NCBI RefSeq assembly: GCF_030323025.1
Contig: NZ_CP097329.1
Coordinates: forward strand, 1,705,001-1,769,000
Reading direction: 5' to 3'
From: Pseudanabaena mucicola str. Chao 1806
GTDB lineage: Bacteria; Cyanobacteriota; Cyanobacteriia; Pseudanabaenales; Pseudanabaenaceae
DNA: 64,000 bases
The translations under genes were made by a program, and so were the position numbers. Below the pieces are notes generated by a model. The model saw only the letters and a program-made list of their open reading frames with translations. It was not told the origin of the DNA and searched no databases. This document shows positions 1,804-63,007 of the stretch, one piece after another (the stretch's first letter is position 1; each line of letters opens with the position of its first letter).

Positions 1804-1836
1804 CTAAAACATAAGCTCTTTACAGAGCTTTAACTA

Positions 1837-1983
1837 ACTTCAGTTCGGGTTAAGCTGGTAAATTTTAAAAGCCTAAGAGTAAAAGCCTTGCTAAGCAAGG
1901 CTTTTACTCTTTTGGGCTTTGAGAGAGGGTTTGCTACGCAAACCCTCTCTCAAAGCCTGTTTCAAATTATCCCGAACTCGCGT
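1837..1983. mobile_element. Palindromic MITE, family D copy 1
   Basis: A 147-bp element with termini ACTTCAGTTCGGG and, on the other strand, ACGCGAGTTCGGG. It is flanked by TAACTA at 1831-1836 and 1984-1989. It contains two nested hairpins, one built on GTAAAAGCCTTGC and one on GAGAGAGGGTTTGC. A second copy lies at 31434-31578. The termini resemble those of the IS982 elements in this window (ACGTGAGTTCG), and the flanking duplication also starts TAA. Confidence 0.75.
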
Positions 1984-1993
1984 TAACTAGAAA

Positions 1994-2097
1994 TAAGTAG
2001 CTCAACTTAATTAAAACTAAAAACCAGATTTTGTTCCGCCCGCGTAGCGGGCGGAACAAAATTCTCGGTTTTTAGTTTACTTATGTCTAACTACTTA
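1994..2097. repeat. 104-bp palindromic repeat, family A copy 1
   Basis: The element runs from TAAGTAGCTC to CTACTTA and folds into one long hairpin. The core stem is TTTTGTTCCGCCCGC with its complement. Copies are at 18363, 28153 and 42969, with a degenerate one at 23992. Every copy begins and ends with TA, as expected of an element that duplicates a TA target. Confidence 0.8.
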
Positions 2098-19523: not shown

Positions 19524-19527
19524 TAAA

Positions 19528-19577
19528 GTTATAGCGGTTTTCAAATGAGTACACACTCATTTGAAAACCGCTATAAC
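19528..19577. repeat. Perfect 23-bp stem palindrome next to the IS982 insertion
   Basis: GTTATAGCGGTTTTCAAATG plus AGT pairs exactly with its complement across the 4-nt loop ACAC. It overlaps the right target duplication. Related degenerate sequences occur near 15546 and near 26828-26862. It may serve as a terminator for the SNF2 gene that ends at 19636 on the minus strand. Confidence 0.75.
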
Positions 19578-31398: not shown

Positions 31399-31433
31399 AC
31401 CTTGATTTTACCTGTTCACCTCGATCTAACGTC

Positions 31434-31578
31434 ACGTCAGTTCGGGTTAAGCTGGCAAATTTTAAAAGCCCAAAAGTAAAAGCCTTGCTAAGCAAGGCTT
31501 TTACTTTTGAGCTAAGAGAGAGGGTTTGCGTAGCAAACCCTCTCTCTTAGCCCGTTTCAAATTATCCTGAACTCGCGT
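31434..31578. mobile_element. Palindromic MITE, family D copy 2, with 7-bp target duplication
   Basis: A 145-bp element with termini ACGTCAGTTCGGG and ACGCGAGTTC(A)GG. It is flanked by TAACGTC at 31427-31433 and 31579-31585. The internal hairpins are those of copy 1 at 1837. It lies just upstream of the DHH-CBS gene. Confidence 0.85.
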
Positions 31579-31628
31579 TAACGTCAGGTTCTGTCATGAA
31601 ATAAATTACAGAGTGAACAACTCAATCA

Positions 31629-43100: not shown

Positions 43101-44103
43101 ACGTGAGTTCGACGGAGTAGACAAAAGCAAAAGAAAAGCTGAGACTAGGTTTGAAGAACTAAAAGCCTCAGCAATATGGACAATATCGTATCGCACTTGG
43201 ATATCACCCAAATCTTCTGTGAAGTCGATGATTTCTGCCAAAGTTTTGAAAAACACTGGCAAGAGCAACCAATGTTACCGTCAATGATAGGAGAAAGGAA
43301 AAGCCAGTCACGAATGAGACTAAGTGAAGTGATGACCATCGTGATTGGCTTTCATGGGTCAGGATACAAGACATTCAAAGAGTTCTACACGATGACCGTA
43401 TTACCATTTTGGCGAAAGGCTTTCCCACACTTGGTAAGTTATACAAGATTTGTGGAGTTAATGCCATGGACATTGATGTTGTTATGTTGCTTCCTGCATA
43501 CACGCAAAGGGGAAGTGACAGGTATATCGTTCATTGACTCAACCCCAATCGATGTCTGTGTAAACTGTCGCGCCCATGCCCACAAAGTATTCAAAGGAAT
43601 GGTCAATTGGGGTAAAAACTCCGTTGGTTGGCACTTTGGTTTCAAACTCCATGTGATTGTCAATGACAAGGGAGAATTGCTAGCTTTTAAACTTACTCCC
43701 GCCAATGTCGATGATCGTGAACCTGTACCTGACATGACTCAGGATCTATTTGGAAAGCTATTTGGCGACCGTGGTTATATCTCCCAAAAACTATTTGAGC
43801 AGTTGTATCAGCAAGGGTTAGAACTGATTACCAAGCGTAAGAAAAAAATGAAAAACTGTCTAGTCAAGCTAATCGATAAGATTTTGCTCCGCAAACGAGC
43901 AATTATTGAGGCGGTCAATGACCAACTGAAAAACATTTCTCAGATTGAGCATTCAAGACATCGCAGCTTTTTCAATTTCCTAGTTAACCTTTTGGCTGGG
44001 TTAGTTGCTTATTCCTATCGCGAGACTAAACCTGCTTTGGATCTTCAAGTCAAAGGCTTGCCTGCTCTACCTCCTGCTTGCTTTTAGTTCGTCGAACTCA
44101 CGT
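43101..44103 (+). mobile_element. IS982-family insertion sequence, copy 2 (intact)
   Basis: 1003 bp with the same ACGTGAGTTCGACG termini as copy 1. It is flanked by TAAATTA at 43094-43100 and 44104-44110. It lies in direct orientation to copy 1, 23.6 kb away. Confidence 0.95.
43176..44087 (+). CDS. IS982-family transposase
   Basis: 303 residues, identical in sequence to the protein at 18596. DDE residues lie in SFIDSTPIDVC, LFGDRGYIS and RAIIEAVNDQLKN. Identity implies recent duplication or gene conversion. The insertion lies downstream of hisI (minus strand) and after the RND gene, so it disrupts no gene. Confidence 0.95.
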   Translation: MDNIVSHLDITQIFCEVDDFCQSFEKHWQEQPMLPSMIGERKSQSRMRLSEVMTIVIGFHGSGYKTFKEFYTMTVLPFWRKAFPHLVSYTRFVELMPWTLMLLCCFLHTRKGEVTGISFIDSTPIDVCVNCRAHAHKVFKGMVNWGKNSVGWHFGFKLHVIVNDKGELLAFKLTPANVDDREPVPDMTQDLFGKLFGDRGYISQKLFEQLYQQGLELITKRKKKMKNCLVKLIDKILLRKRAIIEAVNDQLKNISQIEHSRHRSFFNFLVNLLAGLVAYSYRETKPALDLQVKGLPALPPACF

Positions 44104-52435: not shown

Positions 52436-52819
52436 ATGGCTACTTATTTACAGGTAGAAAAAGCGTTAATCAATCTTGGTTATGATGTTGATTTCAATCC
52501 CCGCTATCGGACGAAACTAATTGGATATATTCCTATTGATGGCTATGAGTCTGAAGTGGTTCTAGAATTTCGCGAGGCGATTCATAGTGAATTGGGCGAT
52601 CGCGATGAATTACTACAAATGGAATGGCTCATGGATGATGGCGAAAGTTGTCTATTGCTAGATAGCAATTCTTTGGATGAGATTGATATGGAACCTCAGA
52701 TATTCGAGGCGGAAAAAATTTTACTGAGAAAGATTTTTGATCGTGTCTATAACGAAATTACACATATTACTGATGTTACGTGGAAGGAACAGACAGTTTT
52801 TGAAGAAGAGAGAAACTAG
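52436..52819 (+). CDS. Small acidic protein of unknown function
   Basis: 127 residues, strongly acidic, mixed alpha/beta (LQVEKALINLGYDVDFNPRY, then DRDELLQMEWLMDDGESCLL). No motif is recognised. Its last 15 or so codons (from about 52776) overlap the end of an IS4-type transposase remnant on the opposite strand, so the native C-terminus may have been replaced by element sequence. AGGAAAG lies upstream of the start. Confidence 0.55.
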   Translation: MATYLQVEKALINLGYDVDFNPRYRTKLIGYIPIDGYESEVVLEFREAIHSELGDRDELLQMEWLMDDGESCLLLDSNSLDEIDMEPQIFEAEKILLRKIFDRVYNEITHITDVTWKEQTVFEEERN

Positions 52820-53345
52820 CCCTAATAGCATTGAAGTAGAGTTTAGCCTTGAGAGCAAAGTGATTGAGTTTAGTATTGATACGAAGGCGCTCTAACTTAA
52901 CAAAAGAAAAAAAGCACGCAAAGATGTGATTTTTCTGAGTATGAGCAATCCCAGTGGGAGACTTAGCGAGAGCTAGATTAGATTTCAAAGACTTGTGAAA
53001 TTCTTCAACTTTCCATCGTTTTTGATAGATTGTGTTGATGTCAGTTGCGCTTATGTCGAGATTACTGCAAGCTAAATACAAAATCCCTGTAGATTGATTT
53101 TTGTTTTTAAAAACTTGCTTGGTGATCGAGACAGGAAAATCAAGTCCCTTTAAAAACACCTTGCAACAGGAACCTGGGTTTAACTCAATTGACTCAAGAT
53201 TAACGAAATGTCCCAGACCTTTATCGTCTGGAGATAATGCAACCAAACGATTGCCTTTAAGAGCAATGATGAAGTCTTTTTTGACTCAGAGATTAATGTA
53301 TTGCATATTTTCTTTGCTACTGAACCAACTATGAACTATGAAGCC
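52776..53345 (-). pseudogene. IS4-type transposase remnant
   Basis: A 156-codon frame at 52776-53246 carries the C-terminal half of an IS4-like transposase: NTIYQKRWKVEEFHKSLKSN with the catalytic Glu, ALAKSPTGIAHTQKNHIFAC, and a Lys/Phe-rich end. Upstream codons read KKDFIIALKGNRLVAL, preceded by an in-frame TGA near 53290 and FIVHSWFSSKENMQYINL. The N-terminal half with the first catalytic Asp is absent. It ends abruptly near 53345 at a fragment of another gene. Confidence 0.8.
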
Positions 53346-57595: not shown

Positions 57596-59184
57596 GTAAC
57601 TACTCAGGCTAAAGATTTAATTCAAGCTAAAGATTTAATAATATTTTCCAAGAAGTAATCAAGGAAGAAGTAGGATTTGAAGAATAAAGCCAGAGCGAAT
57701 CGTAATCGAGATGAAAGAGAGTCCACCAAAGCAAAGAATCAGTAGAGAAGAGATCCGAGGGATCTATCAACAAGGCGAAGAAGCTGTTATTGCTTTGGTG
57801 GAAGGACTATTGCACAAGATAGAGCAACTAGAAGAGCGATTAGAAGTATTAGAAAATCAGGCAAAGAAAGATAGTCAAAACAGTAGCAAACCACCATCAA
57901 GTGACGGATTTGGAAAGCGAACAAAAAGCTTGCGAGGAAAAAGTGAACGGCAAAGCGGAGGACAAATTGGGCATGAAGGCAACACCTTAGAGTGGCGAGA
58001 AGAAATCGATGAAACCATCGTGCATCGGGTAGACCAGTGCGAAAGTTGCGGAGCCTCGTTAGTAGGCACAGAGATATTAAATTGGGACTTGAGACAAGTG
58101 CATGATTTACCACCAATAGTCCTAAAAGTAACAGAACATCAAGCCGAAGTAAAATGCTGTAACCACTGCGGATTATTAAATCGCGGAAAATTTCCAGCCG
58201 ATGTGAGCAACGTAGTGCAGTATGGATCAGGACTAAAGGGATTAATAGTCTATCTGATGGAGGGACAATTACTGCCAACAGAGAGGGTGCGGGAACTAAT
58301 CAGCGAAATATTTGACTGCAAACTATCGGAAGGGACAATCTACAACGCAAGAGAATATTGCTATGGGCAATTAGAAACCGTAGAACAGTATCTAAAAGAG
58401 GGGATACAAGCTGCCGAAGTAGGACATTTTGACGAAACAGGGATGCGGGTCAAAGGAAAACTGATGTGGTTGCATGTGGCAAGTACATCAGGGTTAACCT
58501 ACTACTTTATGCATACCAAACGGGGTCAAATAGCTATGGATGCGATGGATATTCTGCCCAACTTTGACGGTATCAGTGTCCATGATGGTTTATCTAGTTA
58601 TGCCCAATATGATTGTAAACATGCTTTGTGCAATGCACATCATTTACGGGAATTGACGTTTATCGTTGAACGTTACCAACAGCCATGGGCAGAGTTGATG
58701 CTCTCGTTATTGGTTGAAATCAAAGACCAGATAGGAGTTGCCAAAACTGATGGACTCAGCGCTTTACCCTCAGAAAAATCAGCAGATTTTGAGCGACGTT
58801 ATCAGGAACTAATTGACCAAGGACTTAAAGCTAATCCGCCGCCTCCCATAGATCCAGATATCCCACCAAGGAAAGGTCGTCTTAAACAAAGTCCAGCCAA
58901 GAACTTACTCGACCGTCTTCAAAAAAATCAATCGGCTGTTTTAGCTTTTATGTATGATTTTCGTGTTCCTTTTGATAACAATCAGGCGGAACGTGATTTA
59001 CGTATGATGAAACTCAAACAGAAAGTATCTGGCACTTTTCGCTCTCTTGAGGGCGCTCAAATGTTCTGTCGCATTCGTGGCTATATTTCGACTCTCAGAA
59101 AGCAAGGTGTTAATGTTCTGGAGTCTCTCAAACAAGTGTTTCTTGGAAACCATTTCTTCCCAAATCTCCAGCCTGAGTAGTTAC
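57596..59184 (+). mobile_element. IS66-family element, single-gene type
   Basis: 1589 bp, bounded by GTAACTACTCAGGCT and its complement, with 8-bp target duplications GGTGCAAC (57588-57595 and 59185-59192), the length typical for IS66. There are no tnpA or tnpB accessory genes, so it fits the ISBst12-type subgroup. Confidence 0.93.
57711..59180 (+). CDS. IS66-family transposase
   Basis: 489 residues. An N-terminal coiled coil (IEQLEERLEVLENQAKKDSQ) is followed by SSKPPSSDGFGKR and a zinc-finger region (CESCGAS; CCNHCGLL). The DDE core includes VGHFDETGMRVKG, ISVHDGLSSYAQYDCKHALC and NAHHLRELTFI. The C-terminal Glu lies in DNNQAERDLRMMKLKQKVSG. The frame is intact, so the element is likely active. 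The stop codon is inside the right terminal repeat. Confidence 0.95.
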   Translation: MKESPPKQRISREEIRGIYQQGEEAVIALVEGLLHKIEQLEERLEVLENQAKKDSQNSSKPPSSDGFGKRTKSLRGKSERQSGGQIGHEGNTLEWREEIDETIVHRVDQCESCGASLVGTEILNWDLRQVHDLPPIVLKVTEHQAEVKCCNHCGLLNRGKFPADVSNVVQYGSGLKGLIVYLMEGQLLPTERVRELISEIFDCKLSEGTIYNAREYCYGQLETVEQYLKEGIQAAEVGHFDETGMRVKGKLMWLHVASTSGLTYYFMHTKRGQIAMDAMDILPNFDGISVHDGLSSYAQYDCKHALCNAHHLRELTFIVERYQQPWAELMLSLLVEIKDQIGVAKTDGLSALPSEKSADFERRYQELIDQGLKANPPPPIDPDIPPRKGRLKQSPAKNLLDRLQKNQSAVLAFMYDFRVPFDNNQAERDLRMMKLKQKVSGTFRSLEGAQMFCRIRGYISTLRKQGVNVLESLKQVFLGNHFFPNLQPE

Positions 59185-61945: not shown

Positions 61946-63007
61946 CTAAGTACAGGACAAAAATTTAATTGAGTTGAAGAAAGCCTCGGAATTGAGATGG
62001 ATGTCAAAGATGATATGACGCAGGTAATCAAAGCCAAGACGAAAAATGCTCTTAGGTAAGCGACCGTGCTTTTTAGGTTTGAGGGGATTGAGCTGAGCAA
62101 GCCAAAGCCCCGAAGAAAAAGCCCAACATAAAGCGAGGGTGAGTAAAGCAATAAGCTTAGAAAGACGTTCAGGGTCTTGAAGGTGAGTCGCCTCCAAACA
62201 AAAGCCACGAGATTTAAAACAACCAAACAAAGTCTCAATCGCCCAACGTTTGGCATAGTCAGCAATAGCCGTATTCGGATCATGAGCAGTAGCAACAATT
62301 AATAAATCGCCATCCTCCAGACGCATCGCCGCAATATAGAGCCAATGTTGCCAAACTAGTCTGGGCTTGGACAATACCTTGGATTGACCAACTTGGAGAT
62401 CTTGGAAACAAACGTCAGCTCTTAGTTGTTTCTGCCCATCGTTAAGCAAGGTGTTTTTACGAATACGGATACGAAAGCGGGTACATGGGTCACAAAGCAG
62501 GTAATCAAACCATTCTTCCCCCACAAATTCTCGGTCTGCGGTCAAAAAGTCGATTTTGCGGTCTCCAAATATTTCCAGAAATCGATTACACAATTCACAA
62601 CGTTCACGGGTGTTCGAGTTACCTTTTTTATCCAGCATCATCCATACCAATGGGAATGCGATACCGTGATGCACTACTCCCAATGTCAGCTCATTAAATA
62701 CTGTCTTACCAAATCTCCAATCGGTGCGGTCGATACTGATTACCCATGGTTCAGGTATTTTCATCACTTTGACGACCATGAAAGCGATGCTTTCATAGTC
62801 CACTTCAAATTCTCGAAAAAATCTCTGTAATCTCTTATAGTGTGATTCGACTTTGGCTTCACCTCTAAATCCTGTAGCGATTTCGTCTAGGTTTACTGTC
62901 TTTACTCGCATTAGTGCGATCAGGAACATCGACACAAATAAGAGTCTTGCTCTATTCCATTGCAGATGTTCATGCAACTTTTCGCGAAATACGCTAATCT
63001 CTTTCAT
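61946..63007 (-). CDS. IS4-type transposase
   Basis: 353 residues. The catalytic motifs are Asp in WVISIDRTDWRFGK, Asp in DFLTADREFVGEEW and Glu in RWAIETLFGCFKSRGFCLEA. The N-terminal region is MKEISVFREKLHEHLQWNRA. Frame and ends are intact, so it is probably active. The last residue and the TAG stop fall in the flanking duplication. Confidence 0.92.
   Translation of the reverse strand: MKEISVFREKLHEHLQWNRARLLFVSMFLIALMRVKTVNLDEIATGFRGEAKVESHYKRLQRFFREFEVDYESIAFMVVKVMKIPEPWVISIDRTDWRFGKTVFNELTLGVVHHGIAFPLVWMMLDKKGNSNTRERCELCNRFLEIFGDRKIDFLTADREFVGEEWFDYLLCDPCTRFRIRIRKNTLLNDGQKQLRADVCFQDLQVGQSKVLSKPRLVWQHWLYIAAMRLEDGDLLIVATAHDPNTAIADYAKRWAIETLFGCFKSRGFCLEATHLQDPERLSKLIALLTLALCWAFSSGLWLAQLNPLKPKKHGRLPKSIFRLGFDYLRHIIFDIHLNSEAFFNSIKFLSCT

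What the first reader, a model, noticed from the sequence alone, without database searches (positions are those of the whole stretch)
1837..1983. Family D MITE probably mobilised in trans by the resident IS982 transposase
The two copies (1837-1983, 31434-31578) have ends ACG/T...AGTTCGGG, matching the IS982 terminus ACGTGAGTTCG at 10 of 11 positions in the best end. Flanking duplications are TAACTA and TAACGTC; those of IS982 are TAAAGTTA and TAAATTA. Shared end sequence, shared duplication length of 6-8 bp and shared TAA start make a mechanistic link likely.
Basis: partly seen in the sequence, partly recalled or inferred. Interest (0 to 1): 0.55.

Follow-up and report, generated by a model that had tools for sequence, protein, structure and literature searches.

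The report
Orphan miniature transposon of dead IS982
These two short repeats are old copies of a miniature transposon that matches the ends of a second, inactivated IS982-type element rather than the lively IS982 beside them, so the proposed helper is the wrong one, although the family is right.

Summary
The repeats are real: two members of a family of at least 77 in a Pseudanabaena-like genome. They are 145-147 bp with inverted ends, two internal hairpins and 6-9 bp TA...TA target duplications (34 of 63 two-ended copies; shuffled mean 2.2).

The IS982-family link is right; the named helper is probably wrong. The resident IS982 (here IS982-A, 8 full copies) shares only 11 terminal bases. A second element, IS982-B, matches 17-18 bases at both ends with the same asymmetry: GGGATAA at its 5' end, GGGTTAA at its 3' end. 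All 63 two-ended copies fit B better than A, and all have B's polarity. B's ends recur in relatives across cyanobacteria. Duplication lengths also fit B (6-8 bp), not A (7-8 bp).

In this genome the only B copy is split by another palindromic repeat, and a same-species genome carries the same split copy. That genome shares 35 of 39 examined MITE sites, including both window copies, but has no full IS982-A. Five of five informative IS982-A sites are empty there, so IS982-A arrived after these MITEs.

Most likely this is an orphan MITE whose helper has died here. Against this, intact B and MITE numbers do not track each other across the genus. IS982-related MITEs are already known (MITECca01).

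The parts
1837..1983 (+). MITE D copy 1 (147 bp), left end ACTTCAGTTCGGGTTAAG, right end (reverse strand) ACGCGAGTTCGGGATAA
   Evidence: shared site in genome G058 (L269 = L031, left flank; a second G058 contig enters the MITE from the right)
1831..1836 (+). left target-site duplication TAACTA of copy 1
1984..1989 (+). right target-site duplication TAACTA of copy 1
1867..1917 (.). internal hairpin 1 of copy 1 (approximate limits)
   Evidence: read; fold of the family consensus
1918..1957 (.). internal hairpin 2 of copy 1 (approximate limits)
   Evidence: read; fold of the family consensus
31434..31578 (+). MITE D copy 2 (145 bp)
   Evidence: same site with both flanks in G058 (L244 = L070)
31427..31433 (+). 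left target-site duplication TAACGTC of copy 2
31579..31585 (+). right target-site duplication TAACGTC of copy 2
43101..44103 (+). second window copy of IS982-A (1003 bp); transposase 43176-44087; 7-bp duplication TAAATTA; empty site in G058

Best explanation
MITE D is a non-autonomous element that was mobilised in trans by transposases of one branch of the IS982 family (called IS982-B here), whose elements begin with AC[G/C]T[G/C]AGTTCGGGATAAG at the transposase's 5' side and end with the inverse of AC[G/C]T[G/C]AGTTCGGGTTAAG. The MITE keeps one end of each kind around a core of two hairpins that is not derived from the transposase gene. The transposase would bind the two ends and insert the MITE into TA...TA targets, duplicating 6-8 bp. 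In this genome the only IS982-B copy is interrupted, and it was already interrupted in the ancestor shared with a same-species genome, so the MITE family here is now mostly a stable fossil. The abundant resident IS982-A is a later arrival. Shown: end match, polarity, duplication lengths, shared sites, empty IS982-A sites, interrupted B copy. Inferred: that the B transposase did the moving, and that there is no mobility now.
For: Ends: 63 of 63 two-ended copies score higher against IS982-B than IS982-A (mean 31.5 against 22.3 of 36 terminal positions), and 63 of 63 have the B polarity. The genome's own B copy at G000:C1:4411406-4412459(-) has ends ACGTGAGTTCGGGATAAGG and ACGTGATTTCGGGTTAAAG. 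Intact B copies with 293-aa transposases in two genus genomes (L147, L150) have GGGATAAGG / GGGTTAAG ends. A terminus-blind inverted-repeat scan recovered the same type of ends in 23 of 27 B relatives from named genomes. With a B-type pattern, 76 elements gave both ends; 69 have one ATAA and one TTAA end. Duplication lengths: MITE D 6 bp x20, 7 x11, 8 x2, 9 x1; B 6 x19, 7 x19, 8 x3; A 7 x6, 8 x2 in this genome; MITE against A p = 0.004, MITE against B p = 0.35. Timing: G058 shares 35 of 39 examined MITE sites, has the same interrupted B copy and no full IS982-A; 5 of 5 informative IS982-A sites are empty there. Across the genus, G015 has 161 left ends and no full IS982-A, while G023 has at least 17 IS982-A copies and 1 left end.
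Against: Copy numbers of IS982-B and MITE D do not track each other: intact B occurs in G012 and G019, which have 1 left-end match each, and MITE-rich G002 and G022 showed no B copy at the DNA level. No internal deletion derivative linking B to the MITE was found; outside the terminal 18 bp the MITE resembles neither element above chance. One G058 MITE site has no MITE in G000, so some change at MITE sites has occurred since the split. No transposition was observed.
Confidence: 0.85

Rival explanations
1. One reading: the resident IS982-A mobilises MITE D in trans, using the shared terminal ACGTGAGTTCG.
For: 11 shared terminal bases, shared TA...TA targets, 8 full copies, 7 of them scored 100% identical and the eighth also near-identical, hence a lively transposase; transposases A and B are 52% identical.
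Against: Bases 12-18 of both ends match B, not A, in 63 of 63 copies; duplication lengths differ; both window MITEs predate the arrival of IS982-A; copy numbers are dissociated across 26 genus genomes.
Confidence: 0.08
2. MITE D was mobilised by a different, unsampled transposase that has the same ends, for example another IS982 branch with ACGTCAGTTCGGGTTAAGC ends like the Pseudanabaena biceps element L286/L373, and B is only a cousin.
For: L286 ends (ACGTCAGTTCGGGTTAAGC at both sides) match the MITE left end over 19 of 19 bases; B numbers do not track MITE numbers.
Against: L286 has GGGTTAA at both ends, whereas 63 of 63 MITE copies have one GGGATAA end. L286 is itself of the B type by transposase (66% identity to the B query over 289 residues) and by ends, so this is a refinement rather than another mechanism. 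Two further IS982 groups were examined, at different depth: a scan of six copies of the 307-aa group (L109, L288, L290, L305, L307, L308) found no full-length match to the A/B terminus (their own ends were not determined), and the 293-aa group of G022/G002 has ends of another sequence.
Confidence: 0.15
3. MITE D copies are not transposons but dispersed hairpins (REP-like or regulatory RNA) that spread by recombination.
For: Two strong hairpins conserved with both-side changes (20 of 58 pairs, 96% of cells paired; partners slid by 1-3 columns give 5-12 pairs and at most 53% paired); one G000/G058 pair shares only its left flank (L035/L247).
Against: Exact duplications in 34 of 63 copies against a shuffled mean of 2.24, IS982-type ends in register; no Rfam family reaches its gathering score.
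Confidence: 0.03

Closest known systems
MITECca01 of Cardinium cOegib (PMC9769881; section 4 read)
   Same: Short element without transposase whose inverted ends match an IS982-family element (ISCca4); high copy number, mostly intergenic.
   Different: There the parental IS982 has intact copies in the same genome and 5-8 bp beyond the inverted repeat are kept; here the matching IS982-B copy in the genome is interrupted, the core is two hairpins, and bases beyond position 18 are not shared.
IS982 family (review PMC7335449; abstract and passages read)
   Same: AC-starting ends, direct repeats of variable length, element of about 1 kb, NCBIfam NF033520 transposase; one Nostoc member (ISNsp1) has 6-bp repeats.
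   Different: The paper's text had no occurrence of the word MITE; the ATAA/TTAA end asymmetry was not seen in the passages that I read.
Type II MITEs of Anabaena sp. 90 (PMC3542288; passages read)
   Same: Cyanobacterial MITEs of similar size with predicted hairpins and no matching IS in the genome.
   Different: No helper was assigned there; here the helper branch is found by looking in relatives.
Nezha (cyanobacterial MITE; seen only as a reference in PMC10969869)
   Same: Active miniature element in cyanobacteria by its title.
   Different: Paper not read; ends not compared.

Membership tests
MITE (non-autonomous miniature element) | Short, multi-copy, no transposase gene | tested here: met
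   145-147 bp; at least 77 copies
MITE (non-autonomous miniature element) | Terminal inverted repeats | tested here: met
   Both ends share AC-AGTTCGGG-TAA; consensus, fold
MITE (non-autonomous miniature element) | Target-site duplications | tested here: met
   34 of 63 two-ended copies, shuffled mean 2.24
MITE (non-autonomous miniature element) | Moved by a transposase supplied in trans | not testable with these tools
   Needs an excision or transposition assay
IS982-related MITE | Ends of an IS982-family element | tested here: met
   63 of 63 two-ended copies match IS982-B ends better than IS982-A ends; the matching elements encode NF033520 transposases
IS982-related MITE | Internal sequence left over from the parent (type I MITE) | tested here: not met
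   Only the terminal 18 bp match; interior matches are at chance level
Derivative of the resident IS982-A | Ends closer to IS982-A than to any other element | tested here: not met
   0 of 63
IS982 family (for IS982-A) | IS982-family DDE transposase above the curated cut-off | tested here: met
   NF033520, 252 bits against a cut-off of 130
IS982 family (for the local IS982-B copy) | IS982-family transposase above the curated cut-off, intact | tested here: not met
   Above the cut-off in one piece (207.9 bits) but the gene is in two pieces around an insertion; intact relatives L281 and L282 score 270.1 and 264.7 bits

The most novel reading that the evidence does not exclude
MITE D is an orphan family that outlived its helper and keeps its two-hairpin core by concerted change of both arms, and the recent arrival of IS982-A, which shares the outer 11 bases, could re-mobilise it: helper replacement between two branches of one IS family.
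Probability: 0.1. Interest if true: 0.5.

Novelty: new member of a known kind. Interest (0 to 1): 0.3.

Why it matters
It shows how an orphan cyanobacterial MITE can be assigned to a helper by looking for intact relatives in the genus instead of the nearest live IS. It also gives a clean natural case where two related IS982 branches share 11 terminal bases but differ in the next seven, which would let one test what part of an IS982 end a transposase reads. The general type is known, so the interest is moderate to low.

Tried and rejected
Resident IS982-A as helper: rejected on ends, duplication length and timing. Two further IS982 groups: a scan of six copies of the 307-aa group found no full match to the A/B terminus (their own ends were not determined), and the 293-aa group has ends of another sequence. 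Internal deletion derivatives linking B or A to MITE D: none found; interior matches are at chance level. Structured-RNA reading: no Rfam family over its gathering score. Literature: searches; 'Pseudanabaena' with 'miniature inverted-repeat' gave 0 papers. I did not look for this MITE in ISfinder (not available).

Limits of the counts. G058 is a 160-contig assembly. Only 39 of its 78 left-end sites were listed and fetched; of these 35 matched a G000 MITE by at least one flank. For the four that did not: L257 was not tested; L256 has no matching flanks in G000 and L245 has the flanks without the MITE; L276 is a left-end-only copy whose right flank lies differently in G000. Of 8 full IS982-A sites, 3 were uninformative in G058 (two lie inside another multicopy repeat, one in a CRISPR array). 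Fourteen of 77 fetched MITE loci had a left end only and were left out of the 63. For IS982-A relatives I read 5 duplications by eye out of 7 two-ended copies; the other 2 have none. These 5 enter only the 0-of-13 figure. In one search, 98 loci were given, 10 were dropped as duplicates and 12 gave no pair, leaving 76; the pattern used there favours B-type ends, so (terminus-blind) is the fairer test. The name G058 = Pseudanabaena sp. M53BS1SP1A06MG rests on an equal contig length (83,814).

Full report
What is there. The window is positions 1705001-1769000 of a 4.53-Mb single-contig genome. Its genus-mates include records named Pseudanabaena. The two repeats are members of one family. BLAST listed 40 scored copies, a left-end pattern gave 76 sites against 0 for its reversed control, and 77 copies in all were fetched with flanks. 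In 63 of 77 both ends were found. Forty-eight copies are exactly 145 bp, with mean pairwise identity 0.899 and range 0.731-0.993. The element has inverted ends around two hairpins. Exact duplications of at least 5 bp flank 34 of 63, against a shuffled mean of 2.24 and maximum of 10; the lengths are 6 (20), 7 (11), 8 (2) and 9 (1), and 24 of the 34 read TA...TA.

The resident IS982. The window's two IS982 copies belong to a set of 8 full copies and 1 copy broken in two. The transposase scores 252 bits on NF033520. All 8 full copies have ends ACGTGAGTTCGACG and duplications of 7 bp (6) or 8 bp (2). I call this IS982-A.

A closer match. The same genome has a second IS982-family element at C1:4411406-4412459 on the minus strand, with ends ACGTGAGTTCGGGATAAGG and ACGTGATTTCGGGTTAAAG. 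I call it IS982-B. Relatives in the genus have near-complete or intact copies: in L147 (983 bp) and L150 the transposase is 293 aa long and the ends are ACGTGAGTTCGGGATAAGG and ACGTGAGTTCGGGTTAAG. The MITE consensus ends are ACGTCAGTTCGGGTTAAGC and ACGCGAGTTCGGGATAATT. Scored over the outer 18 bases at each end, all 63 copies are closer to B than to A, with no ties, and all 63 carry TTAA and ATAA in the B order. The best copies of other genus genomes, 14 examined, also show GGG(A/T)TAA-type ends where ends could be found, none of the A type.

How general the B ends are. A scan of the genome collection with a B transposase returned 80 loci, mostly cyanobacterial with some Chloroflexi. A search for inverted repeats around 27 of the B loci, without using the expected motif, gave the GGGATAAG/GGGTTAAG kind in 23 (three gave none and one gave an unrelated palindrome; L373 has TTAAG at both ends). 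With a B-type pattern 76 loci gave both ends, 69 with one ATAA and one TTAA end, and duplications of 6 (19), 7 (19) and 8 (3) bp. So the MITE and B agree in duplication length (p = 0.35), while the MITE differs from A (20 of 34 with 6 bp against 0 of 8, p = 0.004).

Timing. A same-species genome, G058, has 78 left-end sites. Of the 39 listed and fetched, 35 have the flanks of a G000 MITE. Both window copies are among them: 31434-31578 with both flanks, and 1837-1983 with its left flank up to a contig end, while another contig enters the MITE from the right. G058 has no full IS982-A; the longest A-type piece is 107 bp at 88%. Five resident IS982-A sites can be read in G058 and all five are uninterrupted with a single copy of the duplicated bases, including both window copies. 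The other three could not be judged. The split B copy is present in G058 at the same length and nearly the same sequence (1,054 bp, listed as 100% after rounding). So the MITEs were in place, and this B copy already interrupted, before IS982-A came in. One MITE of G058 (L245) is absent from G000 with flanks otherwise 96-99% alike and no clean single duplication, so some change at MITE sites has happened since.

Genus-wide counts. MITE-rich genomes (left ends): G015 161, G004 97, G058 78, G002 77, G000 76, G021 76, G022 50. Only G000 (8) and G002 (2, 85% identical) of these have full IS982-A. G023 has at least 17 full IS982-A copies (15 of 1,003 bp in the list, 2 nearly full) and 1 left end. 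The result against my reading is that B does not track the MITE either: intact B sits in G012 and G019, which have 1 left-end match each, and G002 and G022 showed no B copy at the DNA level. The left-end pattern is tuned to this genome's subtype, so divergent relatives of the MITE in G012 or G023 (76-85% identical copies) are undercounted.

Mechanism. Best reading (0.85): a MITE served by IS982-B-type transposases, inactive or nearly so in this genome because its helper is broken. The core is not a remnant of the transposase gene, so it is an end-sharing element rather than a plain deletion derivative. The hairpin arms change together: 20 of 58 pairs have both-side Watson-Crick changes and 96% of cells are paired, against 5-12 pairs and at most 53% for slid partners. 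Whether that is selection or arm-to-arm correction I cannot tell.

Literature. IS982-related MITEs are known: MITECca01 in Cardinium, with intact parental ISCca4 (PMC9769881, section 4 read). The IS982 family review gives AC ends and variable direct repeats (PMC7335449, abstract and passages read). Cyanobacterial MITEs without a matching IS were described in Anabaena sp. 90 (PMC3542288, passages read). Searches listed no paper on this MITE in Pseudanabaena.

Verdict. It is a new member of a known kind, of modest interest.

Noticed in passing
G000:C1:3617887-3618889 (L410), outside the window: One IS982-A copy lies inside a CRISPR array, between repeats of the form GTTTCCAATCGATCGCGTCCCCTAGCGAGTAGGGGA. 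G058 has a similar array at C54:31107-33492.
   Followed up: partly
G000:C1:4411406-4412459(-), outside the window: The IS982-B gene is split by a palindromic repeat of about 100 bp; the same kind of repeat occurs at many other places in G000, G058 and other genus genomes.
   Followed up: partly
window 19524-19575: Right beside the IS982-A copy lies a palindrome (TATAGCGGTTTTCAAATGAGT...ACTCATTTGAAAACCGCTATA) whose first part matches more than 20 other places in the genome.
   Followed up: no
window 1990-2090: Directly after MITE copy 1 comes another palindromic repeat (centre GTTCCGCCCGCGTAGCGGGCGGAAC) with mirrored flanks, probably a second MITE-like family; similar sequence flanks MITE copy L057.
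   Followed up: no
G000:C1:3162011-3162258 (L063), outside the window: A MITE D copy abuts a 103-bp fragment of the IS982-B 5' end, as if it had inserted into a B copy.
   Followed up: partly
MITE D loci L031-L070 and L204-L240 against G058 L241-L279: Shared MITE copies often differ more between G000 and G058 (for example 138 or 140 of 145) than their flanks do (99-100%); gene conversion between copies or misassembly of repeats are possible.
   Followed up: no
window 61946-63007 and 57711-59180: Other transposase genes in the window: an IS4-family (NF033591) and an IS66-family (NF033517) gene, and an IS701-like fragment at 52776-53246.
   Followed up: no
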